From: Ectocarpus siliculosus
Lineage: Eukaryota > Sar > Phaeophyceae > Ectocarpales > Ectocarpaceae
Direction: 5' to 3'
Length of the DNA: 21,578 nt
Assembly (NCBI GenBank): GCA_000310025.1
Contig: FN649727.1
Location: forward strand, 3,067,422 to 3,088,999
Part shown: positions 2,215 to 14,257 of the stretch, in pieces
Position numbering within the stretch: the stretch's first letter is position 1
How the letters are laid out: each line of letters begins with the position of its first letter
Position numbers and translations under genes: made by a program
Notes under the pieces: generated by a model
The model's input: only the letters and a program-made list of their open reading frames with translations
Database searches by the model: none
Told to the model about the DNA's origin: nothing

Positions 2215-5016
2215 TTGTGTGCGTGGCTTGTGGTTCCTCACTTCCTTTTTCTGTGTATAATCAAGTCCTTTTTCCGGCTCTCACGCCAACCCCGGCTTCC
2301 ACGCCCATACTCCGGCTATCACGCCAACCCGGCTTCCACGCCTTCAGGACTCCCACGTCCCTACATATACCTTTACATCAGGGCCACCACGCCACCCGGC
2401 TTCCACGCCACAACTATATTATACACGAGCTTCCACGCTCCACCACGTAGAAGGGCTTTCACGCCCGCGGATAGTTTCTACATTTTGACCGTTGGCAGTA
2501 CCCAGCTGCTGGCACCTTTTGTTTCCCACTACGGGACCCCGCGCCGAGGCACCCACGCACAAAGCTACTCAACAGCCTCTGTCTTTTTCGACCACGCTCT
2601 GTATGCACCGCATGATGGTGTTGGTGCTCGCGCCGCTGATCCCCAAGAAGAGGCCACACGTCTGTTTGAGCTTCGCTCTGAGGCCAGGCGTGTCCGCCTT
2701 TTCCAAGAGGATGAGCATGCTCGTGGGGCTATAGCCTCGAGTAGCGTGCGTGCGCGTAAACCGGCTGCTCCCTCTGTATCCACTGTTTTTGCTGGTGATG
2801 CCGTTCATACCCCCACCGGAACATCTCCGTCTCCTTTTGAGACTGCTGTTTCTGGTGATGATGTGGTGGCCACCGGTTCTGCCGTAGTGGCCACCCACCC
2901 CTCTGATGTGCGTTCAGTCGCAATAGGAGCTCTTCTTCAACCTTCCGATGTGCCTTCAGTTGCACTAGGGAATGTCCCCATTCCGCGTGACGAGCTTCGT
3001 GTTCCGTCTACAGCGGATGACGGGACTGTCAGGTTTTCTGACGGTGTACAACGTTCCGCCGCATCCGCTGTTGCACCTGTTTTGCGTAGTACGTCTCGCG
3101 ATGCGTCTGCTCCTAGCAGTTCTAGTATTCGTTCTGATGTGCGTTCAGTGGCACCACGGACCATCAACACCTCTCGAGGTGTGCGTTGCGATACGCCTGC
3201 TATTAACCATGTAGCAAAATCGCAGATCCCTGTTAGAGAAAACAGCACGGGCGCTCGGCCGGCACATGTTGATGCTAATGTGACTGCCGCCCGAGTGTCC
3301 GCTTCTCAGAGTTATACCTCTAAGACTAACGGAGAGCAGGCACTTGCTCGTGATAATCGTCGCCAGGTTCGCAATGCACGCGCTGTAGCTTCTGCTCACC
3401 ATGTGCCTGCTCCGCCTCCCATGCTTTCTTCCGCTCATGAACGTGCAGCTACAGCAGCTGCCCTAGAACAAGTTCGTCTCGCCGAAGCTCGCAACGCGGA
3501 CCTGTTTCGAGCACTTCAAGCTATGACGACCTCTGCACCTACGACTTCCTCCGACTCCACGCCCCCTGCGGGATCTCCTCGTCGTCCCGGCCCTTCGGAG
3601 GACACGGAATTGGCAGCTCTCTCTTCTCCGGCCTTGCGCGAGGCCACCACGGGTCCTGAGAGCCGTCATCGAGCCGAGCGCCCCGCGGCGCCCGTGCTCA
3701 TGTCCTCTTCGGCGACTGCGGCCGTCACTTCCGCCGCTGCTGCCGCTGCTGCGGCTACTGCTGCTGCTGCTGCACCTGCGCCTGCCACCACGGCTCCTTC
3801 GCCAGCTGCTGCTCCACCGATCGCATGCCCGCCACTCCTCACCTATCTCAGCGCCCGCTGGCATACGTTTCCTCGAGACATGCAAGCGCTACTGGCCTCT
3901 TCGGAGGCTGAGGCGGCCACCTGCGCTGCGGTGGACCGTGTCCGGGCCGATCGCTTGGCCCGGGCACAGCAGCTGGAAGATGAAGCAGACCGCGAAGAGG
4001 AACTCGGGATAAAGAACGCCCTGGGTTCCACGGAGGGCGTCACCCTGAAGGTCGCCACCGATCTTCACGACACTGAGGCGGCCATAGCTGCCTTACAGGC
4101 GAAGCATGCTTCGCTGACGACGGCCGCCGCCGCCGTCAAGGAAGAAGGAGCCCGCCACCGTTGCGAGCTGGAAGCTTTCAAGGGGCGTCGACAGCGGCGC
4201 CTTCGGGATCGCGAGGCACCCGATTCCGGCGCCAGCTCCAGGGCTTCATCAGTGGAGCGAGACGCCTTCCCGGCGCTTCCATCACGGGCGCAGCGGACGG
4301 CGTCGTCTCCCACGGCTCGCCGCGGGGTGTCCTACGCTGCAGCTGCCCGCAGCCCCACCACGCGGGGCAGCGAACGCTCGCTTGCCTTTCGGAAGGGCGA
4401 TGCAGCCTTTTCGAAAGGCATCTTGAGGCACATGGCCCAACATGTGCAGTTTAGTTTCCAAGAGTCGGACCGCGAGCGCGTGCTCCGTGCGGCGGAGGCT
4501 GTGGCGATAGCGATGCCGCCGGACAGTACTGTTGAGGACGCCATGCGCGAGGCCAGGATTCGTGGGAACCCGTTACTCGATCAGGTCGAGTACCTGCTGG
4601 GGTGCCTTCGGGCGGCACACGGGAGGGTGACGGGTACGGTGGCGTGGCCGGGCTGCTACAACGCTGTTGCACCCCCCCCTGTTCCGTCTTTCGACACCTT
4701 CGCCCCGGCGTCATCTTCATCTTCGAGGCGAGGAAAGCAAGCGGGCCCAAGAGCGGGGGGCGCGGGAGCGGAGGAGGTGGCTCCGGCGACAGCGACAGCA
4801 GCCACTCCCGCGGATCCGCCCCCTCCCATCGCGGCCGTGCTCCAGCGTCTTCTTCGGCGTCCAGCTCTTCGGAGCGCGTGGACAAGAAGGTGGTCAAGAA
4901 GAAGAGCCGCACCTCTCGCCCGTCTTCGGACGCCGCTGGAGGAGCATCCTCGGACTCCGCCTCGGAGCGTAGTCTTCCTCGGAAGGCTTCTTCGGGCCGG
5001 TCTTCCAGGCAAGTAG
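2215..5016 (+). CDS. Large N-terminal Gag part: disordered, Ala/Ser-rich, with coiled coil
   Basis: This long frame-1 ORF has no clear family match. It begins on a non-ATG codon, and the first in-frame ATG is only at 3421 (residue 403), so the true start is unresolved. Residues up to about 490 are Ala/Ser/Pro-rich with repeated SDVRSVA or SDVPSVA phrases. An alanine tract follows (about 3700-3830). Then comes a charged helical stretch rich in Glu, Arg and Ala (about 3840-4200) that looks like a coiled coil and ends in the basic segment FKGRRQRRLRDRE. A more compact region around 4390-4620 (FSKGILRHMAQHVQFSFQ to QVEYLLGCLRAAHG) may be folded. After about 4670 the composition of this frame degrades and frame 3 looks like the real protein, so the coding path probably moves -1 within 4668-4765. 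The position and strand make it the N-terminus of Gag; a structural role is inferred. Confidence 0.7.
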   Translation: MCAWLVVPHFLFLCIIKSFFRLSRQPRLPRPYSGYHANPASTPSGLPRPYIYLYIRATTPPGFHATTILYTSFHAPPRRRAFTPADSFYILTVGSTQLLAPFVSHYGTPRRGTHAQSYSTASVFFDHALYAPHDGVGARAADPQEEATRLFELRSEARRVRLFQEDEHARGAIASSSVRARKPAAPSVSTVFAGDAVHTPTGTSPSPFETAVSGDDVVATGSAVVATHPSDVRSVAIGALLQPSDVPSVALGNVPIPRDELRVPSTADDGTVRFSDGVQRSAASAVAPVLRSTSRDASAPSSSSIRSDVRSVAPRTINTSRGVRCDTPAINHVAKSQIPVRENSTGARPAHVDANVTAARVSASQSYTSKTNGEQALARDNRRQVRNARAVASAHHVPAPPPMLSSAHERAATAAALEQVRLAEARNADLFRALQAMTTSAPTTSSDSTPPAGSPRRPGPSEDTELAALSSPALREATTGPESRHRAERPAAPVLMSSSATAAVTSAAAAAAAATAAAAAPAPATTAPSPAAAPPIACPPLLTYLSARWHTFPRDMQALLASSEAEAATCAAVDRVRADRLARAQQLEDEADREEELGIKNALGSTEGVTLKVATDLHDTEAAIAALQAKHASLTTAAAAVKEEGARHRCELEAFKGRRQRRLRDREAPDSGASSRASSVERDAFPALPSRAQRTASSPTARRGVSYAAAARSPTTRGSERSLAFRKGDAAFSKGILRHMAQHVQFSFQESDRERVLRAAEAVAIAMPPDSTVEDAMREARIRGNPLLDQVEYLLGCLRAAHGRVTGTVAWPGCYNAVAPPPVPSFDTFAPASSSSSRRGKQAGPRAGGAGAEEVAPATATAATPADPPPPIAAVLQRLLRRPALRSAWTRRWSRRRAAPLARLRTPLEEHPRTPPRSVVFLGRLLRAGLPGK
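2274..2475 (+). repeat. Degenerate short repeat with core CCGGCTTCCACGCC
   Basis: An approximately 18-20 base motif with core cCGGCTtcCACGCC recurs at 2274, 2292, 2312, 2329 and 2396, with weaker forms near 2430 and 2454. Spacing is regular for the first four copies (18-20 bases) and then loosens. It lies at the very start of the open gag frame, where the frame has no ATG, so it may be 5' leader rather than protein-coding. Function is unknown; packaging, dimerisation or promoter repeats are possible but not shown. Confidence 0.65.
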
Positions 5017-6833
5017 TACCGTCTCTCGTGGATGTTGCTTCTGATGATCGTCTTAACGCTCTTCTGCGTGATGGTCATCTTGTGTTTTCGAACACTGTGT
5101 TGCGTAGTGACAAGTCTGTCAAGTTGACAGACTTCCGTGGTGTTGATGTTGCAGACACAAAGCCGTCTATTAAGACCGAACCCAGTGGGGTTGCTGTTGA
5201 AGCTGCCCCACCGTCTGTAAAAACAGAGCCTCTTGCCATAGCGAGTGTGCCCACCGATGATAGTGCTCTGCCGCTTTCTTCCACCACTGCTCACGCTCGC
5301 CATGCAACGGTTGCTGCTGCTGCTTCGGCAGTTGATGCCGCACGTGTTGCTCGTGTCCAACGTGAGTACATCACCCTCAACCTCAAAAAAGTTGAACGTG
5401 TATCCGCTATGCCTTTCCCTGCGTCTTTGCTGCCAGCTGATGCATATCAGCAGCTCATTCGCACCGTTCGATCTGCGCTCACGGATATTTTGATGTTGTG
5501 TGATGATCGTAGCGTCGGTTTGATGGACTCCGATTTTGTCCGAGGTTGGGAGCGCCCTCTTCAAAAGAGAATTTTGAGTGCGATCTCACCTGACAAACCT
5601 ACTACATCCGACCTTGTCCTCTCCATTTCTGATTATTTTCAGCAAGTGAAGCGGAGGCTGGATGAAGGAGCCACGGGTCCAGAGGCCTTCATGCTCCTTC
5701 TGCGACTGCTGTCGGAGCAATTCGATGTCGGAGATCGACAGGAGTCGTTTTTGCGACTTCAGCATTTTGGTGTTTCGAATGAAACCTTGTTTGCGGATTA
5801 CCTTAGGGCGTTCCGCCTTTTGGTTTCTTCTGTCACCGGATCTGAGCGTGTTTTGGCTCCTAGCGTGTCTATGGTGCTTGAGATAGTCAGGAATTCTGTA
5901 AGTAAACAGTTTCCGTCTTTGGCTCCGATGCTGTACCCTGGTGATCTGGCTACGGCCGTGACACCGTTTGACTCGATTGATGCAATGTGGCAGGCGTTCG
6001 CGCCTTTGGCCACCAACAAAACCCCCGCTATAGGAGGTTCAGAGTATTTTTCTTTGTCTTCCACGCCTGGTTCTTCGCAGCCCCGGCGTTCCCAGAACCG
6101 TGCACCTGCACCTGCGCCTTCGGGCCGGTGGGCACAAGGTTCTGCACAAAATCCTGTTGTTTTGGCAGTTCAGTCTCAGGGCGGCGGTGATGATCCGTTT
6201 TCCCGTGATTATAGTGCATGGCCCGCCACACAGGGCGATTGGTCGAATGTGTACCAAGTCAGTTCCTCTTTCCGTAACACCGGTGATCCTTTTTTGTGGA
6301 CTCCTCTCTTGACTCAGGACGCTCGCTCGCAAGCGTTTCGAGAGAACCGTAACCGTTGTTTGAACTGCTCTGGTGATGACCATTCCATGAAACACTGCCC
6401 AGCTCCTTTCACAAATTCTAGCGGTCTGTTGAACCCAGAACTAGGTGAGCTGAACGACAACTCTGACGCTTTCCGACGTTGGCAAGGCCGTATGAGGTCT
6501 TACCGTCGCAAGCCACACACCGGTTCAGGTGCTGGTGGCGGGCGTAACAAGCGTCACTCTTCGTCTTCGTGTAGAAATCACGCAGGCGACTACCGTAACA
6601 ACGGTAACTCCCAGAATGATGGTCGCAATAATGGAAATTTTGCTCATAACTCGCGACAGCCGTCCACAGACAACACCCATCACACTGGTGCTCTGTCTAC
6701 ATACCGACCGCAATCATCGGTCCACACAGGCTCTCCTCCCGGCGCTTCTGTTTCGTCTAACTACAACGCTAGACAGCCGGGAAATTTCCAATCTGGCGGT
6801 CAGAATGGCCACAATGCTCGTGGGTCCAACTGA
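4602..6833 (+). CDS. Gag: capsid-like region and CCHC zinc knuckle
   Basis: Frame 3 opens inside the preceding ORF on a GTG, so this is not an independent start; it should be reached from frame 1 by a -1 shift near the C8 run (4670s) or the G-run at about 4755. A basic Ser-rich segment (DKKVVKKKSR) is followed by two SUMO-type motifs, IKTE at 5169-5180 and VKTE at 5217-5228. A helical region at about 5400-5960 (MPFPASLLPADAYQQL through MLYPGDLATA) has the size and character of a retroelement capsid. The zinc knuckle CLNCSGDDHSMKHC at 6357-6398 fits CX2CX4HX4C and should bind element RNA. The tail is rich in Asn, Gly, Ser and Arg. The frame ends at TGA 6831-6833 but remains open beyond it. Gag forms the virus-like particle; this assignment rests on the knuckle, position and composition. 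Confidence 0.82.
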   Translation: MPSGGTREGDGYGGVAGLLQRCCTPPCSVFRHLRPGVIFIFEARKASGPKSGGRGSGGGGSGDSDSSHSRGSAPSHRGRAPASSSASSSSERVDKKVVKKKSRTSRPSSDAAGGASSDSASERSLPRKASSGRSSRQVVPSLVDVASDDRLNALLRDGHLVFSNTVLRSDKSVKLTDFRGVDVADTKPSIKTEPSGVAVEAAPPSVKTEPLAIASVPTDDSALPLSSTTAHARHATVAAAASAVDAARVARVQREYITLNLKKVERVSAMPFPASLLPADAYQQLIRTVRSALTDILMLCDDRSVGLMDSDFVRGWERPLQKRILSAISPDKPTTSDLVLSISDYFQQVKRRLDEGATGPEAFMLLLRLLSEQFDVGDRQESFLRLQHFGVSNETLFADYLRAFRLLVSSVTGSERVLAPSVSMVLEIVRNSVSKQFPSLAPMLYPGDLATAVTPFDSIDAMWQAFAPLATNKTPAIGGSEYFSLSSTPGSSQPRRSQNRAPAPAPSGRWAQGSAQNPVVLAVQSQGGGDDPFSRDYSAWPATQGDWSNVYQVSSSFRNTGDPFLWTPLLTQDARSQAFRENRNRCLNCSGDDHSMKHCPAPFTNSSGLLNPELGELNDNSDAFRRWQGRMRSYRRKPHTGSGAGGGRNKRHSSSSCRNHAGDYRNNGNSQNDGRNNGNFAHNSRQPSTDNTHHTGALSTYRPQSSVHTGSPPGASVSSNYNARQPGNFQSGGQNGHNARGSN

Positions 6834-7181
6834 CTCGTCGGTGGCGGTTCGTGTACCTCCCCCGACCCGCCTTCGGCACCATCGGGACATATTGCACGTT
6901 CTTCACAAGATGTACGTGTATCAGGGATGGTGGAGCGAGGTGCTCCTGCCCTGCGAAACGCTGGTGCCCTTGCACCCGCTGTTTCTTCTCCATATTCGGA
7001 CAAGAGGGTTGGGAATGCACAAGACGATGCCGTTCCCCTTTTACCCTCCCACATTTCGCTTGCAACCTCTGCTACTTCGCCTCTTTTGATGGGTACTTTT
7101 TCGGGAAATGACTCCCCCGAGGGGAGTGCCGTCTTGAGGTGCGGGAACAGAGCGACCAGACGCGCGGGCCACCGAGTGTAG
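6834..7181 (+). other. Gag frame continuing past TGA, overlapping the NADAR frame
   Basis: Frame 3 stays open for 115 codons after the TGA at 6831-6833 and stops at TAG 7179-7181. The peptide is Ser/Pro/Ala-rich (for example SAPSGHIARSSQDVRVSG) and similar in style to the neighbouring Gag linkers, so it is probably genuine coding sequence once joined to Gag. It overlaps the frame-2 NADAR ORF, which is open from 7112; joining them needs a -1 shift inside 7112-7181. The TGA is followed by CTC. Either one TGA mutation plus one indel broke a single Gag-NADAR ORF, or translation is recoded at these points. Confidence 0.55.
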
Positions 7182-8806
7182 TTCGGCAGCTCCCCCCGGC
7201 GCCTGCAGGTAAGACCGGCAAGAGCAACGCGCTTTATATGATTGAGGAGGATTCGTCAGAAGTGGTCAATTCTGATGCGTCTTCTGATACGTGTGATCCG
7301 TCTGTGCTCGCTGCCGCCGTTGGTCCGCCAGCCGCCGCAGCACCGGTAGCGGTTTCGTCAGGTTCCGACCGACGATTCTCGCCCGGTGGGGCTAAGCAGA
7401 CCCCACCAATTGCCAACGAGAACGATCGTGCAGAGGTGCAAACCAGGAACATCCCGCGATCGACGTTGAGAGTGTTGACAGCACCGTCTCCAGAGGACGC
7501 TTCAGAGACGCCCGCCGTAAATACGGTATGCTCGCGATCCTTGTCACGGAGGACCGGCCAGGAGCACCTTGCACCGTCCAAAGTTGTATTGACAGACAAA
7601 GCACTGGTGTCCGCTCCTAGCGAAAGCGATCTATATGCCCCCTGGTCCGGATCGGATGCGGGTACGGTAGAAGATCTAGAAACGGACAGCCCTATACGAA
7701 GCGTGGCGCCCCCGTTTATCTCGGCGAATTCGGCAGTGGATTCGAATTCTCCGATGGACCCATCCCCTGATTTAGGCAATTTAGCAATGGATGTAAATTC
7801 CTTTGCCCGCACACCTGGCACCGGCCCATCTGCAGAAGATGTTGACCATAATGCTGCCCAGGCGTCTCCCACTTCAGGTCGTTTAGCAGTGGACACACAT
7901 CCTGCTCGTACTTCTCGTCATCGCCCGTCCCCGAAAGACGCTGGTTTCGATGCTACTCAGGAGTACTCCAATTCAGACGTGGTCCTATTTTGGAAATCCC
8001 CTTCTCCCTTCTGTCAATGGACCCCATCTACTTTTGTCGTTGATGGTACTTCGTATGTGTGTGCAGAGCAATGTTTTGCGTCAGAGAAAGCTCGTCTTTT
8101 TGGCGACCGCGAATGTCTACAGAACATCATGAGAGTTTCCGACCCCGATCTACACAAGAAGTATGGTCGTGCGGTCCAGGGTTTCGACCAAACTCTCTGG
8201 GAGAAGGAGCGCGAAAATATCGTGCTGACTGGCTCTTACGCTAAATTTTCCCAAAATCCAGAGATGAGACTACACCTCCTTGGATCCGGAGACAAACTTT
8301 TAGCAGAAGCCAGTCCTTATGACTGCATTTGGGGAATCGGTCTTCGTGCAGATCATCCGGACACTTGTCGTCCGTCTCGTTGGCGTGGTCTAAATTTGTT
8401 GGGTGTAGCTTTACAGAACGTTCGCCAACTTTTACGATCAAACGCCCCACAGCCAGAACGTAGTTCTCGCTTAGCGGCTTTGGGTAAAACGCCCAGCCCA
8501 GATCGTTGTACCGTGTTCGAAGTTAATCCTTCCACGCATCAACGGCTGTCGACGGCACCTGTGCCGTCGTCTTCGGAGCGTTTTGCGTCCTTTTCGCAAT
8601 ACGTCACTAGTGTCCCGTCCGATCATGACAACAGCGTTTGGGCTGTGTCTCGGGACACTGACCATCCTGATCCTCAGTCGCCTTTGCTTCCTGAGCAAGG
8701 TCCTAGTTTAGTCGGCGGTGTAATCACCGTTGACGATGACTCTTTCACTGCACGAATCCTCACCCATTGTGGCTCTGCTTCTACGCAATTTGGATGCGTG
8801 GCGTAG
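7139..8806 (+). CDS. NADAR-domain (YbiA/DUF1768) protein embedded between Gag and protease
   Basis: The N-terminal ~275 residues are disordered and rich in Ser, Pro, Asp and Ala. Residues about 280-434 (bases 7976-8440) form a complete NADAR domain of normal size. It opens at VVLFWKSPSPFCQW, has the helix EQCFASEKA with E310 and K317 in the family's conserved E-x(6)-K pattern, KFSQNPEMRLHLL, the block GDKLLAEASPYDCIWGIG (384-401, with D395 and W398) and the closing NLLGVALQNVRQLL. Family members cleave N-glycosidic bonds: E. coli YbiA acts on riboflavin-pathway intermediates, and some NADARs remove ADP-ribose from guanine in DNA. The remaining ~120 residues lead into the protease (ARILTHCGSASTQFGCVA before TAG 8804-8806). 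The first codon of this frame is GTG; the first ATG is at 7238, but translation is more likely continuous with Gag. That the domain is active, and what it acts on, is inference. Confidence 0.87.
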   Translation: MREQSDQTRGPPSVVRQLPPAPAGKTGKSNALYMIEEDSSEVVNSDASSDTCDPSVLAAAVGPPAAAAPVAVSSGSDRRFSPGGAKQTPPIANENDRAEVQTRNIPRSTLRVLTAPSPEDASETPAVNTVCSRSLSRRTGQEHLAPSKVVLTDKALVSAPSESDLYAPWSGSDAGTVEDLETDSPIRSVAPPFISANSAVDSNSPMDPSPDLGNLAMDVNSFARTPGTGPSAEDVDHNAAQASPTSGRLAVDTHPARTSRHRPSPKDAGFDATQEYSNSDVVLFWKSPSPFCQWTPSTFVVDGTSYVCAEQCFASEKARLFGDRECLQNIMRVSDPDLHKKYGRAVQGFDQTLWEKERENIVLTGSYAKFSQNPEMRLHLLGSGDKLLAEASPYDCIWGIGLRADHPDTCRPSRWRGLNLLGVALQNVRQLLRSNAPQPERSSRLAALGKTPSPDRCTVFEVNPSTHQRLSTAPVPSSSERFASFSQYVTSVPSDHDNSVWAVSRDTDHPDPQSPLLPEQGPSLVGGVITVDDDSFTARILTHCGSASTQFGCVA

Positions 8807-9598
8807 CTGGACACCGGTTCACCCCAGACTTTCGTTAGTTCTCGAACTTGGGAGTCCATGAAAGCCGCGGGTGCAGCTTCGTCGTTGTTTGAAACACGCA
8901 CCCAACCTCGTTGTTGGGGAGGGTTTGGTGAGTCCGCCCCCCTTCAAACGTCGACCATGGTCCGTTTAAGCGTGCAGTTTCTTCGGCGAAAATTCCCGAC
9001 CGCTTCTCTCGCCGTTTGGGCGTATGTTGTGCCTGACGGTGTTATGCAACATGATGTGTTGCTCGGCAGGGATAGTTGGATGCGTTTCAGCGACCGTTCC
9101 TACCGTGCCTTGCCCACAAGACGCCCAATGATCGCGTTTTCGGGGAACTGACTTTAGCCCACCATAAGCACGGTGGTGCTGAAGCTTTTGTGCATGACGT
9201 CACTGCTCGTGAGGGTAGTTTCCAGCTTAGATATGCTGGCCGACATCCCATTCAATTACTGCCTGAACACCAACTGGTTCCAGTTGATTTAGTTCGCAGT
9301 GATGGGTCTCCTGCCCTTGTAGGCAATTATCTGGTAGATATGTTTGCCTCAAACGTCCATGTTTTCTTCAGAAGAACATTTTGTTACTCATGGCCGCCAA
9401 CGTGTGCCATTAGCGGGAGTTTCGAGTTTGGAACCGGGTGATGTTTTGGGTACCGCTTCAGCGCCCCTTCTCAAGGTTCCTCTTGGTGCGTTTCCGTGTG
9501 ATACCGACGGAGCTGGTCTTCCGGCCACCGCCGTTTCACCCACTCCCGTTTTCGGACACCTCGCAATCTGCCCATACGGACCCTGGCCCCGTTTTTAA
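8807..9598 (+). pseudogene. Aspartic protease and PR-RT connector, split over three frames
   Basis: The retropepsin active site LDTGSPQTFV starts on the first codon after TAG 8804-8806, in the same frame as the NADAR ORF. The second signature HDVLLGRDSW lies at about 9050-9079. Frame 2 then ends at TGA 9149-9151. Homologous-looking protein continues in frame 1 (GELTLAHHKHGGAEAFVHDV, to about 9340), then frame 2 (SSEEHFVTHGRQRVPLAGV, to about 9550), then frame 3 (SDTSQSAHTDPGPVFNYDG). This implies a one-base loss near 9136-9148, a one-base gain near 9336-9345 and another near the TTTT run at 9547-9555. The enzyme would release Gag and Pol products. With TAG inside the N-terminal strand and three frame changes, the assembled sequence cannot give a complete protease and polymerase by ordinary translation. 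Confidence 0.85.
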
Positions 9599-12500
9599 CT
9601 ACGATGGCTCCGGTTCGACAGCGTCACCGACGGCTCATTCGTTTGTGTATGATCTGCATGAACGGACCGCCAAACCGCCGCATCCGGCGCCTGGTTCGAA
9701 TCCTTCTGATTTGACTCCTCTTTCGCCTTGCCCGGCTCTTTTGGCGCGTTTAGCACCAGATCAACGTGCCAATTTCTCTCGTGTGTGGGATAAGCTCCCC
9801 CGTCACTTGCGAGAAATCACGTTTAATTTACATGGTCCTGGTTGGACACCGGACGTTATTACCGAATTGGGTAAGGTGCTATGTGAATATCACGACGTGT
9901 TTTCCAGTTCGCCTACGGATTTCGGTTCTTGTTCATTGTTCCCGTTCAAGTTGACCGTTCCCTCCGGCAGTGAGCCCGTTACACCTCGTCCGTACCGAGT
10001 TAGTCCTCCGGTTTCGAAGCAAGTGGACGCTATCCTCGACCAATATCTTGCTGCGGGTCTTATACAACACTCGACGTCACCGTACTCGAGTCCTTTGGTT
10101 GTAATACCCAAGAAATCCGGTGGTGTTCGCATCACCGTAAACTATCGTAAGCTGAATAAAATATGTGCTCTTAGTCAGCTTCCGAATCCTAGAGTTGATG
10201 ATACTCTGGACAAATTATTGAAGGGGAAGATTTATTCTCTCTTTGACATGAAATCTTCGTTCCATCAGATCACGGTTCATCGTGATACCATCCCCCTCAC
10301 GGCGTTTGTTACGTCTTCTGGGCTGTTTGAGTGGTTGAAAATGCCTCAGGGCAGTGCCGCTGCTCCCGGATGGTTCTGTAAGGTCGTCAACGAAGTCATC
10401 AAAAATCTTCGAGGTGTTGCGTTGTATCTGGACGACCTCATTGTCTTTGATGAGACCCCGGCCGCTCATGTAGCGACCATTCGCTCTCTTTTCGAAAGAT
10501 TGCGCGAGCACAATTTGAAACTGACTCCTCCGAAAGCCACTATTGGCGCCACGGAAGCCGAGTTTCTTGGGCACACTATATCTCCGGACGGAGTTCGGCC
10601 CAATGGTGAAAAAGTTGTTGCTCTCACCAAGATGCCGATGCCCAAAGACACCAAGCAGCTTCGAGCTTTGCTGGGTGGTTTGGGTTATTACCGGAAGTTT
10701 CTTCCACAGATGGTTAAGCGTATTCGCCCTTTTACGACTCTTCTTAAAAAGAATGTGAAGTTTGAGTTCACGGGTTCAATGGAGTCCGTCGTTCGCCAAC
10801 TTCTCGAAGAACTGGCGAACCCTCCAGTTTTGGTGTATCCAGATTGGGATGCTGTATCCGACGGTCCGCGCCCTTTTCGCCTCTACTGTGACGCGAGTAA
10901 AGATGGGTTTGGTGGAACTTTGGAACAAGAACAACCTGATGGCTCTATTCGGCCTATTGTTTTTGTTAGCCGAGCTACTTTGGAATCTGAGCGTCATTGG
11001 ACTCCTCTGGATCTTGAAGCTGGCAGTATCATTTGGTGCATCAAGCGCCTTCGCGGTTACCTATGGGGCACCCAGTTCAAGATTTTCACGGATCACAAGT
11101 CCCTTGAACACCTTGCAAAGGTGGGGGAAAACAACGCTCGCGTTCAACGTTGGTTGGAGTTCCTGACAGCATACTCCTACACTCTTGAGTATCGCAAGGG
11201 TTCGTCTAACGGCAATGCTGACTTCCTTTCTCGACTACCGATAGAAACTACCGAGCGTGACCGTTCTGGCCGCAGTCGTTTGACTCCGTCGGCTGAAGAT
11301 GAAACGGTTTATTTTATCCGCTCTTGTGGGTTTGTGCCTTCTGGCCATCAAGCCGGTGTTGACTTGGGTGGGCTCGTGCCGTCCGCCCCGTGTTCAGTCT
11401 TGGGTGGGCTACCGCCTTCTTCAGCTGATTTTGCTGATTTTCGCGAGCACGGACCGCGCGCTACTGTCGCTCATTCTGACGTTCCCTCGGGCGTTTGGTC
11501 TGTTCGTGGTTTAACCCCGACTGTTATCGGTGCTTCGGGCTCTACAACCGCTCGCAACCGCCCTCCCTTGGTCGCCTCGGGTCGTTCTGCAGTTTCGACT
11601 GCTGCTGGTGTTTTTTCCGTACAAGATGCGACAGAAACGCCCGCTACACGCCCTGGTGCTTCATCCAGGCGCGCCCTGGATCCTACCGATCTAATTTCGA
11701 CACGAACCCGTCGGCGAGCTGCTGCTGCCGCCGGTACTCCGCGCCCGGCTGTGGACTATGGCTTTTCCCAGCCGGAGGACTCGCTTCTCGAGCCGACTGT
11801 TCCTCCGTCTGTAGCTCGTGCGCCTCACGTTCATCAATCTTCGGCTCCCCGGCCGGTGGATTCCGCCGCTTCGGCGCCACTGAGTCCAATTCCGGAGATG
11901 GCCGTTCGCCCAGACCCGACACCGCCAACGCCCGCGTCTGGACCTTTGCTTGGTTCGGTGCGTGTTCCGCCGGCTGTTGATACCCCAGTGCTTTCGGGCG
12001 TGGAGCTCGATTTCCGCGAATCGGTTGAGCGTTTTTCCCATTCTGATTGGGAGCGAGAACAACGCGGTGAACCCGTGTGCGATGCCGCCATACGCTACAT
12101 CCTTCTAGGTCAACCTCCCGAATTACCGCCTGGTTTTCTTGACCACCTTCCGTCACACCGTCGACCTTCGTTTTCGGACATCCGTGAACTGGCACATAAA
12201 GGCCGGTTGCACGTTGACGACGATGACGTAGTGCTTCTCGTTAAGAAGCCCACCACAACCGCTTCTGCCACTTCCACGCGCCATGGCGGGCGTGCAGCAC
12301 GTCTCCTCAACGACGAACCTATTAGGGTTTACGTCCCCATGTTGATGCGCCCATGGATCATGCAGATCTGTCACGCTAATGCGTCTTGTCATCTTGGTGC
12401 AGCTCGTACGCTGTCTATGTTAGAGCGTTTCTACTGGTGGGTAGGCATGAGCGTCTGTACCAAATGGTGGATTCGCCATTGCCTCAAGTGCCAAGCTCGT

Positions 12501-13001
12501 AAAACTTCCCGACAAACGGCCCGGTGGCCCATTTTAAGTTTGCCACTGCCGTCCGGACCAGGAGTATCCGTGAGTGTCGATTATTTCGGCCCACTGCCGA
12601 CTACCCCTAGGGGTAACACTTACATTCTGCTTTTCACCGACCGGTTTAGTCGGCGTGCTGACATGTACGCCGTTACGGCTGCTGAGTTTACCGCTGAAGG
12701 TACTGCAGATATTTTCGTGAATCGGTATATCCCTCTGTGGGGTTGCCCTTTGAGTCTTTTATCAGACAATGGCACACAATTTTGCTCGAAACTGTCACAA
12801 GCCGTTTACAAACGTCTCGCAGTTCGCAAAGTGGCCACCAGTTTGTACCATCCTAATGGAAATGGTGCTGTCGAGCGTGTTAACCATACTATGGCACAAA
12901 TGCTTGCCATGGTCGTTAACGAACGGCAAGATGATTGGGACGTCCATCTCCCTCATGTAGAGTTTGCCTATAATAACTCTGTAGCGCGGCCACCGGTTTA
13001 G
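9438..13001 (+). CDS. Pol: reverse transcriptase, RNase H and integrase of a Ty3/gypsy element
   Basis: The first codon is GTG and the first ~35 residues are out-of-frame sequence; the authentic protein enters near 9550. RT shows KSGGVRITVNYRKLNKI, SLFDMKSSFHQI (D270), a FEWLKMPQG box and the catalytic YLDD at residues 330-333. RNase H shows YCDASKDGFGGTL (D485), PLDLEAGSIIW, FTDHKSLEHL and NGNADFLSRLP. A Ser/Pro/Ala-rich linker of roughly 250 residues follows, much longer than usual. Integrase then has its zinc-binding region with CLKCQARK, and a core of D1048, D1110 and E1146, spacing DX61DX35E, matching D-D-35-E. The frame ends at TAG 12999-13001 inside the conserved EFAYNNSV motif; the rest continues in frame 2, implying loss of one base at 12981-12983. 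Its products copy RNA to cDNA and insert it into chromatin. Confidence 0.95.
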   Translation: MMFWVPLQRPFSRFLLVRFRVIPTELVFRPPPFHPLPFSDTSQSAHTDPGPVFNYDGSGSTASPTAHSFVYDLHERTAKPPHPAPGSNPSDLTPLSPCPALLARLAPDQRANFSRVWDKLPRHLREITFNLHGPGWTPDVITELGKVLCEYHDVFSSSPTDFGSCSLFPFKLTVPSGSEPVTPRPYRVSPPVSKQVDAILDQYLAAGLIQHSTSPYSSPLVVIPKKSGGVRITVNYRKLNKICALSQLPNPRVDDTLDKLLKGKIYSLFDMKSSFHQITVHRDTIPLTAFVTSSGLFEWLKMPQGSAAAPGWFCKVVNEVIKNLRGVALYLDDLIVFDETPAAHVATIRSLFERLREHNLKLTPPKATIGATEAEFLGHTISPDGVRPNGEKVVALTKMPMPKDTKQLRALLGGLGYYRKFLPQMVKRIRPFTTLLKKNVKFEFTGSMESVVRQLLEELANPPVLVYPDWDAVSDGPRPFRLYCDASKDGFGGTLEQEQPDGSIRPIVFVSRATLESERHWTPLDLEAGSIIWCIKRLRGYLWGTQFKIFTDHKSLEHLAKVGENNARVQRWLEFLTAYSYTLEYRKGSSNGNADFLSRLPIETTERDRSGRSRLTPSAEDETVYFIRSCGFVPSGHQAGVDLGGLVPSAPCSVLGGLPPSSADFADFREHGPRATVAHSDVPSGVWSVRGLTPTVIGASGSTTARNRPPLVASGRSAVSTAAGVFSVQDATETPATRPGASSRRALDPTDLISTRTRRRAAAAAGTPRPAVDYGFSQPEDSLLEPTVPPSVARAPHVHQSSAPRPVDSAASAPLSPIPEMAVRPDPTPPTPASGPLLGSVRVPPAVDTPVLSGVELDFRESVERFSHSDWEREQRGEPVCDAAIRYILLGQPPELPPGFLDHLPSHRRPSFSDIRELAHKGRLHVDDDDVVLLVKKPTTTASATSTRHGGRAARLLNDEPIRVYVPMLMRPWIMQICHANASCHLGAARTLSMLERFYWWVGMSVCTKWWIRHCLKCQARKTSRQTARWPILSLPLPSGPGVSVSVDYFGPLPTTPRGNTYILLFTDRFSRRADMYAVTAAEFTAEGTADIFVNRYIPLWGCPLSLLSDNGTQFCSKLSQAVYKRLAVRKVATSLYHPNGNGAVERVNHTMAQMLAMVVNERQDDWDVHLPHVEFAYNNSVARPPV

Positions 13002-14257
13002 CACCTAATGAGGTGCATATCAACCGTTTGCCTCGCCTTCCGATGACTGTCATCGAGCATCCTTATGCTCGTGGTCATCAAAGTTTGGATCGAGACCATC
13101 TCCAATATTGCGACCTCGCTGCTGATCGCCAACGTCGTGCTTACGAGCTAGTACGCGAGCAGCACAAGTTATCCATTTCTCGGATCGAGCGTCGAAATTC
13201 CGCTCTCTCGGATGCGTTGCACAAGCTTCCGACTTACACCATCGGCGATTGGGTTTGGATCTATAATACCGAATCTACCATTCGCTCCGGTGTTCGATCA
13301 GGCACCGACGACAAGGTTCTCAAAGCGAAGTTATCATTGCTTTGGACCGGTCCGTTTAAAGTGTTGGCTGTAGGCCCCTGTTCGAAAGCCCCTGATGGCA
13401 GTCCTCTCGCGGCCAAGTTGTTATACTTGGATCTTCCGTCGGACCTGCCGGGCAAAGACTCGAAACGTCGTGTTTCGGTCGCACGCTGCAAGCCATGCGC
13501 TAATCCGCATGACGCTGAGGACCTGCCACGGTTTCTGCCGACTGGTCTCACGCAGTATGTTTTAAACAACTATACGACCAAATCTCCTCCGTATCATGTT
13601 ACGGAAAATGACGTCTCGACTTCGGTCGAACGCCTCGAGGTGGAACAAATTACTGGTCACCAGTCTGTTCGCGGTCGTGGTGGTGTTATCGCAGTTCTGT
13701 ATCAGACACATTGGAAGGGTCTTCTCCGCCCTTCTTGGGAGCGTGAGATGGACCTTCAGCACTCTCGATCGCAGATTCTCCGGTATTGGACGGGTACGCC
13801 CGATCAACACCGTCAGACGAATCGCCGATACCGTGCAATGCGTATTGGCGCAGCCGCACGCGAATTGGCACGTGCTAAGGGCGAGAGATATTTGCCTCCG
13901 GGTTACTCCTTTGTCTCCTGCTCAACCTGGGACCGTCGTTTCGCCGATACTCCTCTACCTGTGGGTGCGTTCTTCTGGTACAAGGCTCAAGATGGACTCT
14001 GGTGGCTGGGCAAGATTTCTGGACCGACTGAACGGGCTGACCACTACATCGTACGCTTCCTCGACGACCCCGGACCGGTCAAGATCGCCCTCTCCGTTGT
14101 TCGTTACTCTACCCTCGGATCGGCCGTCTGCGGTTCGTGGTGCCTTCAAGTCCACAGCGGTAGCGCCCTCATGAAAGGACTTCTTCGCAATGTCGACATG
14201 TCGCGAAACGTGGAGGCGGAGCATTCGCCGCCAAATGATCCGGCACGCACCGATTAG
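12992..14257 (+). CDS. Integrase C-terminus, chromodomain and a Tudor-like barrel
   Basis: Frame 2 resumes integrase with ATGLAPNEVHINRLPRLP, the direct continuation of the frame-3 EFAYNNSV; the first listed start codon at 13013 is a GTG and not a real start. Residues about 70-150 (numbered from 13013) are the integrase C-terminal beta barrel (YTIGDWVWIYNTES, LSLLWTGPFKVLAVGP). A chromodomain follows at about 204-262, with VERLEVEQITGHQ, YQTHWKGLLRPSWERE and DLQHSRSQILRYW. Of the usual methyl-lysine cage aromatics only W234 is in place. After a basic linker, residues 317-367 form a second small beta-rich unit with GAFFWYKAQDGLWWLGKI and HYIVRFLDDPGPVKIAL, resembling Tudor/Agenet readers. These modules probably direct integration to particular chromatin. 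The ORF ends at TAG 14255-14257. Chromodomain assignment is strong; the Tudor-like call is tentative. Confidence 0.88.
   Translation, partial: TGLAPNEVHINRLPRLPMTVIEHPYARGHQSLDRDHLQYCDLAADRQRRAYELVREQHKLSISRIERRNSALSDALHKLPTYTIGDWVWIYNTESTIRSGVRSGTDDKVLKAKLSLLWTGPFKVLAVGPCSKAPDGSPLAAKLLYLDLPSDLPGKDSKRRVSVARCKPCANPHDAEDLPRFLPTGLTQYVLNNYTTKSPPYHVTENDVSTSVERLEVEQITGHQSVRGRGGVIAVLYQTHWKGLLRPSWEREMDLQHSRSQILRYWTGTPDQHRQTNRRYRAMRIGAAARELARAKGERYLPPGYSFVSCSTWDRRFADTPLPVGAFFWYKAQDGLWWLGKISGPTERADHYIVRFLDDPGPVKIALSVVRYSTLGSAVCGSWCLQVHSGSALMKGLLRNVDMSRNVEAEHSPPNDPARTD

What the first reader, a model, noticed from the sequence alone, without database searches (positions are those of the whole stretch)
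7976..8440. A complete NADAR (ADP-ribose-linked N-glycosidase) domain built into a Ty3/gypsy retrotransposon between Gag and protease
Seen: a full-length NADAR core with the EQCFASEKA helix, the SPYDCIWGIG block and the NLLGVALQNVR end, in the same frame as the downstream protease and flanked by Gag on the left. Known: NADAR proteins cleave N-glycosidic bonds (YbiA on riboflavin intermediates; some remove ADP-ribose from guanine in DNA), and NAD/ADP-ribose enzymes are common in virus-host conflict. Inference: the element may use it to undo ADP-ribosylation of its nucleic acid or particle by the host, or to act on NAD metabolites in the particle. I cannot tell whether this fusion has been described.
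Basis: partly seen in the sequence, partly recalled or inferred. Interest (0 to 1): 0.88.

Follow-up and report, generated by a model that had tools for sequence, protein, structure and literature searches.

The report
NADAR enzyme inside algal Ty3 retrotransposon
A jumping gene in what is probably a brown-alga genome carries, inside its replication polyprotein, an enzyme domain of a family known to strip ADP-ribose from DNA bases; the fusion was already reported in Ectocarpus in 2025, and here it looks old, widespread in its element family and kept by selection.

Summary
Window 7976-8440 encodes a full NADAR domain (Pfam E=9.2e-43) in the N-terminal part of Pol of a decayed Ty3/Gypsy copy, between a zinc-knuckle Gag and the protease. 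It is no one-off: of 150 places in the genome picked by the window's RT, 124 have a NADAR within 4 kb upstream, 129 with a second NADAR list. Nine of 11 ADP-ribose-contact residues are identical in 27 of 29 copies, and changes between sub-families show purifying selection. But the fusion is published: Dinatale et al. 2025 (PMC12477816) report a YbiA-family NADAR at the N-terminus of Pol in one whole Gypsy lineage of Ectocarpus. Additions here: Gag ends in TGA-C at 17 junctions from five sub-families, and the same frame stays open through NADAR in 7 of them, so NADAR is probably made by readthrough; the nearest named free-standing relatives are Myxococcota and Planctomycetota; and NADAR fusions also occur in other, tyrosine-recombinase-type elements of environmental samples. 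Best reading: a packaged ADP-ribosyl-nucleic-acid hydrolase that protects the element's RNA or cDNA. The enzyme class is well supported; substrate and role are inferred.

The parts
4602..6830 (+). Gag ORF; other copies match from about residue 190 onwards
   Evidence: Gag of other copies 30-50% identical over the matched pieces
6357..6398 (+). Gag zinc knuckle CX2CX4HX4C
6831..6833 (+). TGA at the Gag-Pol junction, followed by C here and at 16 other junctions read
7139..8806 (+). ORF with the N-terminal part of Pol: Pro/Ser-rich linker, NADAR, second linker; ends in a TAG just before the protease motif
7976..8440 (+). NADAR domain (YbiA family; Glu equivalent to E125 at 8306-8308)
8807..9148 (+). 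retroviral-type aspartic protease (LDTGS), open to the stop at 9149
   Evidence: by motif and by matches among copies, not by Pfam
10104..10580 (+). reverse transcriptase core (PF00078)
10869..11174 (+). RNase H (PF17917)
12333..12854 (+). integrase: H2C2 zinc domain and rve core (rve 31.6 bits, just under its cut-off of 32.6)
13637..13789 (+). possible chromodomain (E=0.024, below cut-off)
   Evidence: a C-terminal chromodomain is reported for Gypsy-12_Ec32 (PMC12477816)

Best explanation
It is a probably active YbiA-family NADAR domain that an ancestor of one brown-algal Ty3/Gypsy lineage captured, ultimately from a bacterial source, and that has been kept under selection at the N-terminus of Pol. 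Gag ends at UGA-C and Pol continues in the same frame, so NADAR would be made at low level by stop-codon readthrough, packaged with protease, RT and integrase, and probably freed by the protease. In the particle it most likely hydrolyses N-glycosidic ADP-ribose from guanine of the element's RNA or single-stranded cDNA, removing a block placed by host ADP-ribosyltransferases. Shown: domain, position, linkage to RT, active-site conservation, purifying selection, same-frame UGA junction in intact copies. Inferred: catalysis, readthrough, packaging, substrate, benefit.
For: Pfam E=9.2e-43. Of 150 RT places picked without regard to NADAR, 124 have a NADAR upstream in the list and 129 when the list is added. 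In 20 of 20 NADAR-picked copies, protease and RT/integrase follow on the same strand; 18 of 20 have a Gag match upstream. Nine of 11 residues that contact ADP-ribose or matter for catalysis in P. nicotianae NADAR are identical in 27 of 29 copies; E43, K50, E125, D130 and W133 in 29 of 29. NADAR pN/pS is 0.23-0.57 in pairs between sub-families; dN/dS is 0.17 for the least saturated such pair (D-D2) and 0.09 for window-F. Ty3 and brown-algal NADARs group together with SH-aLRT 99 and 95 in two quick trees. TGA-C at 17 junctions from five sub-families; frame open through NADAR in 7 of 17, from sub-families A, C and D. The NADAR/YbiA proteins tested in PMC11125620 all hydrolysed guanosine-ADP-ribose (passage). 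The survey PMC9503650 favours host macromolecular ADP-ribosylation as target of NADARs of eukaryotic RNA viruses (passage). PARP catalytic pieces exist in this genome (4 places).
Against: No structure or activity could be tested. No DarT and no KptA match was found, so no nucleic-acid ADP-ribosyltransferase is identified; these searches are blind to introns, so the absence is weak, and the PARP matches are short pieces. PMC11125620 also says that NADARs outside DarT1 operons did not act efficiently as antitoxins, so the substrate cannot be read from the family. NADAR evolves faster than RT in the closest pairs (77 vs 91% for window-F; 81 vs 95% for D-D2). Two young pairs give high dN/dS: A-A2 1.25 and, with a broken frame, F-F2 0.62. 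NADAR and RT trees share 5 of 8 splits. 21 of 150 RT places have no NADAR in either list and were not read. In 10 of 17 junction copies the frame is closed or shifted between the TGA and the end of NADAR.
Confidence: 0.5

Rival explanations
1. RNA-end or NAD-metabolite processing: the domain acts on ADP-ribose-containing RNA ends (such as NAD-capped or ADP-ribosylated 5' ends) or on soluble ADP-ribose signals of an antiviral response, rather than on bases.
For: RNA processing is what Dinatale et al. suggest. The survey PMC9503650 posits soluble ADP-ribose derivatives, or by-products of RNA processing, for viral NADARs in general and phage ones above all (passages).
Against: No KptA found in this genome (blind to introns); the NADARs tested act on guanosine-ADP-ribose.
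Confidence: 0.25
2. House-cleaning N-glycosidase: it destroys damaged or toxic ribosyl metabolites, like YbiA on riboflavin intermediates. The comparison with retroviral dUTPases is recalled, not looked up.
For: YbiA family by its Glu at the E125 position; a stress-induced Ectocarpus NADAR protein improved stress tolerance in Arabidopsis (PMC7922944, passages).
Against: It is fused inside Pol, probably made in small amounts; nothing found here ties reverse transcription to riboflavin intermediates.
Confidence: 0.12
3. Non-enzymatic binding role: the fold binds ADP-ribosylated nucleic acid or protein and tethers the particle or Pol.
For: Position next to Gag; binding alone would also conserve much of the pocket.
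Against: Residues needed for catalysis (equivalents of E125 and K50) are kept in 29 of 29 copies.
Confidence: 0.08
4. Chance passenger without function.
For: Many copies are decayed; 21 of 150 related RT places have no NADAR in the lists.
Against: At least 129 of 150 RT places keep it; selection between sub-families; intact active site.
Confidence: 0.03

Closest known systems
Gypsy-12_Ec32 lineage of Ectocarpus (Dinatale et al. 2025, Genome Biol 26:320, PMC12477816; outline, passages and part 1 of 2 of section 5 seen)
   Different: Their consensus sequences were not at hand for comparison; their main text has no occurrence of 'stop codon', 'readthrough' or 'frameshift', supplements not seen; selection and contact residues were analysed here
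NADAR/YbiA enzymes (E. coli YbiA 2B3W; 8BAU, taken to be P. nicotianae NADAR because the numbering fits with an offset of two; DarT1-linked NADARs; myxobacterial YarT-YbiA)
   Same: Pfam family, catalytic Glu, ADP-ribose contact residues
   Different: Those are free-standing or antitoxin proteins, not part of a Pol polyprotein
Tx1 LINE ORF1 NADAR of Crassostrea gigas (reported in PMC12477816)
   Same: NADAR captured by a retroelement
   Different: Other element class; not examined here
DNMT-carrying retrotransposons (de Mendoza et al. 2018, PMC5890265; passages seen)
   Same: Nucleic-acid-acting enzyme captured into Pol of DIRS and Gypsy elements, with purifying selection reported for the Gypsy case
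   Different: Methyltransferase instead of glycosidase; NADAR, DUF1768 and YbiA do not occur in the text held

Membership tests
NADAR superfamily, YbiA family | Significant match to PF08719 | tested here: met
   E=9.2e-43, profile 2-163 of 163
NADAR superfamily, YbiA family | Catalytic Glu in the last strand (E125; Asp in BC4488 type, His in phage type) | tested here: met
   Glu in 29 of 29 copies; criterion from PMC11125620 and PMC11543638
NADAR superfamily, YbiA family | ADP-ribose contact residues | tested here: met
   9 of 11 identical in 27 of 29 copies; Y84 is Phe in 27 of 29, D86 varies
NADAR superfamily, YbiA family | YbiA fold | not tested
   Structure prediction was busy four times, then switched off
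NADAR superfamily, YbiA family | N-glycosidic ADP-ribose hydrolase activity | not testable with these tools
   Needs protein
Ty3/Gypsy (Metaviridae) retrotransposon | RT-RNase H upstream of integrase in one Pol | tested here: met
   (RT, RNase H and H2C2 over cut-off; rve 31.6 bits against 32.6)
Ty3/Gypsy (Metaviridae) retrotransposon | Gag with zinc knuckle and aspartic protease | tested here: met
   both by motif and by matches among copies, not by Pfam
Ty3/Gypsy (Metaviridae) retrotransposon | Flanking LTRs | tested here: inconclusive
   None found around the decayed window copy; other copies were not searched for LTRs
[quoted passage not shown]
   Position met. An Ectocarpus sp. CCAP 1310/34 protein with NADAR, RT and integrase (P0124) pairs with family F in both trees, and the window groups with them. 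Gypsy-12 itself was not at hand, so identity of the lineage is likely but not tested
Ectocarpus NADAR-Gypsy lineage (Gypsy-12_Ec32) | C-terminal chromodomain | tested here: inconclusive
   PF00385 E=0.024, 15 bits, cut-off 25.1
UGA readthrough Gag-Pol | Gag stop followed by Pol in the same frame | tested here: met
   Frame open from the TGA through NADAR in 7 of 17 junction copies (sub-families A, C, D); the other 10 have later stops or frame breaks. 4 of 21 copies gave no readable junction
UGA readthrough Gag-Pol | Measured readthrough | not testable with these tools
   Needs a reporter assay

The most novel reading that the evidence does not exclude
NADAR is a recurrently captured retroelement enzyme. 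Separate retroelement lineages (Ty3/Gypsy of brown algae; tyrosine-recombinase-type elements of environmental samples such as those behind P0126 and P0205; Tx1 LINEs as reported by others) took it up independently to strip ADP-ribose from their RNA or cDNA. That would imply an ADP-ribosylation-based nucleic-acid defence against retrotransposons in algae and other protists that is not yet identified.
Probability: 0.3. Interest if true: 0.8.

Novelty: new member of a known kind. Interest (0 to 1): 0.48.

Why it matters
If the domain acts on ADP-ribosylated nucleic acid, it points to a host defence that ADP-ribosylates retroelement RNA or cDNA in brown algae, which is testable with one purified domain and standard substrates. 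Fusions in other retroelement classes make it harder to dismiss as an accident. As a bare fusion it is already in print.

Tried and rejected
One-off insertion: rejected. Loss of catalytic residues with neutral drift: rejected. Host stand-alone NADAR gene in this genome: looked for with PF08719 (150 scored of 230) and with the Pylaiella protein P0010 (150 scored of 265); nothing stood out from the element copies, but the lists are capped and blind to introns, so a host gene is not excluded. Of 26 NADARs unpaired, 5 were read (L024, L049-L052) and all 5 are pieces of the same elements; 21 were not read. LTRs in the window: none found. ORF 2215-5016 is not Gag by comparison with the 20 fetched copies. 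My first mapping of the contact residues was off by two after K50 and was corrected. The careful tree search did not finish; quick trees are used. Structure prediction and so fold search could not be run. Ascertainment: the 28 fetched copies used for anatomy, selection and residues were picked by NADAR matches, so that each carries NADAR is by construction; only the RT-picked list tests how general it is.

Full report
What is there. The window holds a decayed Ty3/Gypsy copy on the + strand. A Gag ORF (4602-6830) has a CX2CX4HX4C knuckle at 6357-6398 and ends in TGA at 6831-6833. The ORF 7139-8806 starts with a Pro/Ser-rich stretch and contains a complete NADAR domain: PF08719, E=9.2e-43, profile 2-163 of 163. 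The protease motif LDTGS follows at 8807, after an in-frame TAG in this copy. RT, RNase H and integrase domains follow in 9438-12998, and a sub-threshold chromodomain in 13013-14254. Frames are broken in several places and no LTR pair was found, so this copy is not intact.

Is it a family feature. The window lies in a 189 Mb genome of 492 contigs. A Pfam search scored 150 NADAR matches of 230 candidates, all over the curated cut-off. A search with the window RT core scored 150 of 428 candidates. Pairing the two lists, 124 of 150 NADARs have such an RT downstream on the same strand within 4 kb (671-2688 bases, median 1627), and 124 of 150 RTs have a NADAR upstream. A second NADAR list, from the Pylaiella protein, adds 5, so 129 of 150 RT places have one. 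The lists are capped and the other 21 RT places were not read, so they are neither for nor against. Five of the 26 NADARs unpaired were read and all are pieces of the same elements.

Anatomy of copies. The 20 best-scoring NADAR places were fetched over 10 kb. They were picked by NADAR, so its presence is by construction. What they show is the company: 20 of 20 have protease and RT/integrase matches behind it, 18 of 20 a Gag match in front, 19 of 20 a match to the window's C-terminal ORF. With eight more shorter loci and the window they fall into at least seven sub-families (A, B, C, D, D2, F and the window's own E) by NADAR, RT and protease similarity (the grouping is mine).

Conservation and selection. 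In NADAR the window is 52-77% identical to the other copies (one copy with a disrupted stretch 38%), in the RT core 57-91%, in protease 51-82%, in Gag 30-50% over the matched pieces. So NADAR is about as conserved as other enzymes of Pol and more than Gag. Of 11 residues named as ADP-ribose contacts or catalytic in P. nicotianae NADAR (PMC11543638, passages), mapped through the alignment to 8BAU, nine are identical in 27 of 29 copies; Y84 is Phe in those 27 and D86 varies. The two exceptions, L047 and L048, have a disrupted stretch inside the domain, and even they keep the equivalents of E43, K50, E125, D130 and W133. With Nei-Gojobori counts on 12 representatives, NADAR pN/pS between sub-families is 0.23-0.57. 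The least saturated such pair, D-D2, gives dN/dS 0.17 for NADAR (dS 0.88) and 0.02 for RT; window-F gives 0.09 for NADAR, 0.07 for protease and 0.04 for RT (dS 1.5-1.9). Most other pairs between sub-families are saturated in dS. Against this, within sub-families A-A2 gives 1.25, F-F2 0.62 (F2 is the disrupted L047) and B-B2 0.49, while C-C2 gives 0.18 and D-D1b 0.16; the high values fit decay after insertion. NADAR changes faster than RT in the closest pairs, which may be relaxed constraint or adaptation; I cannot tell which.

Expression layout. In 17 of 21 copies (20 fetched plus the window) I could place the Gag end, in each case where the Gag frame closes with TGA. At all 17 the TGA is followed by C, and the next codons of the same frame are alike within and partly between sub-families, with a Gly-rich motif. 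Ten of the 17 are near-identical copies of sub-family A, so the independent count is five sub-families (A, B, C, D, E). From the TGA the same frame stays open through NADAR in 7 of 17 (L023, L024, L027, L033, L038 of A; L034 of D; L039 of C), for 2175 codons in L033 and 2015 in L034; in L032 of B it stays open into NADAR; in the rest, the window included, later stops or frame breaks intervene. The other four copies (L028, L035, L036, L040) gave no such junction. One stop at one place in five sub-families, with long open Pol frames behind it in the least damaged copies, argues for programmed readthrough rather than damage. Readthrough itself is not measured. Same-frame Gag-Pol by readthrough is known from Moloney MLV (UAG; PMC5009743, passages). 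That UGAC is a leaky context is recalled, not looked up.

Origin. In a search of 5.8 billion proteins (262 hits, 120 listed) the best named are Ectocarpus sp. CCAP 1310/34 (74%) and Pylaiella littoralis (55%); unnamed proteins reach 76%, and those that fall outside the Ty3 group in the tree reach 59%. In named bacterial genomes the 13 best loci are all Myxococcota or Planctomycetota, at 50-58%; viral contigs reach 51%. In two quick trees the Ty3 and brown-algal NADARs form one group (SH-aLRT 99, 95) next to such bacterial and environmental proteins; the branch joining it to one myxobacterial row has support 82. This agrees with Dinatale et al., who saw almost only bacterial hits outside Ectocarpus. 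The NADAR and RT trees of 11 elements share 5 of 8 splits; family B and the unnamed elements P0122 and P0123 move, so exchange between elements or weak signal is possible. The Pylaiella protein may be a host gene or an element fragment. The host of the window is not given; a brown alga is inferred from the Ectocarpus relatives.

Other retroelements. A search for long proteins with this domain gave six: four Ty3 proteins (P0121-P0124) and P0125 and P0126. P0126 carries NADAR and an RT (E=2.1e-15). Of 75 proteins of its RT family returned (P0126-P0200; only part of the candidates was scored), P0126 alone has NADAR in the precomputed domains. P0205 carries NADAR and a tyrosine recombinase (E=1.7e-8, over the cut-off). 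P0202 and P0201 have recombinase matches below the cut-off (E=3e-4 and 0.011), P0203 an RT match below the cut-off (E=0.0023; 1.2e-12 with a profile of the P0126 family), P0125 a C5 methylase, and P0204 no other Pfam domain. A recombinase-like end in P0125 and P0126 was seen by eye only. In the trees these NADARs lie apart from the Ty3 group, mostly on long branches; five of six retroelement-type ones group together and P0125 does not. Two relatives of P0126 carry a NUDIX domain. These look like further captures of ADP-ribose-related enzymes, independent of the Ty3 one. I saw no report of that in the listings (20 of 104 papers listed), nor in the passages of de Mendoza et al.; the library holds open-access papers only. 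Host species are unknown.

Mechanism. Published biochemistry: NADARs of several types hydrolyse guanosine-ADP-ribose, with the last-strand acidic residue and the lysine important, though NADARs outside DarT1 operons did not protect efficiently in cells (PMC11543638, PMC11125620; passages). The Ty3 domain has that residue set. I judge that it is an active ADP-ribosyl N-glycosidase (likely) that acts in the particle on the element's RNA or cDNA (plausible) against host ADP-ribosylation (speculative). The genome has PARP catalytic pieces (4 places) and one Macro piece but no DarT or KptA match, in searches that do not see across introns, so the supposed host writer is not identified. Rivals are RNA-end or metabolite processing, house-cleaning and a binding role.

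Prior knowledge and verdict. The fusion is described for Ectocarpus in PMC12477816 (passages and part 1 of section 5; [quoted passage not shown] The finding is real and most likely belongs to that lineage. New here are the readthrough layout, the selection and active-site evidence, the taxonomic placement, and the extra element classes.

Noticed in passing
window:139-1527: Ty1/Copia reverse transcriptase fragment (PF07727, E=3.7e-36) upstream of the Ty3 copy.
   Followed up: no
P0125, P0126, P0201-P0205 (environmental proteins): Long proteins with NADAR, several with RT, tyrosine recombinase, C5 methylase or SET matches: probable captures by tyrosine-recombinase-type retroelements.
   Followed up: partly
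P0127, P0200 (environmental proteins): Relatives of P0126 that carry a NUDIX match and no NADAR beside the RT.
   Followed up: partly
window:6831-6833 and 16 other copies: Gag ends in TGA followed by C; Pol frame continues behind it.
   Followed up: yes
window:16517-16739: AT-rich direct repeats about 150 bases apart (53 and 40 nt pairs).
   Followed up: no
window:2215-5016: 933-aa ORF upstream of and overlapping Gag, no Pfam match up to E=1 and no match in the 20 fetched copies.
   Followed up: partly
P0010 (Pylaiella littoralis, 248 aa): Free-standing NADAR with an N-terminal Cys-rich stretch, near the base of the Ty3 NADAR group: host gene or element piece.
   Followed up: partly
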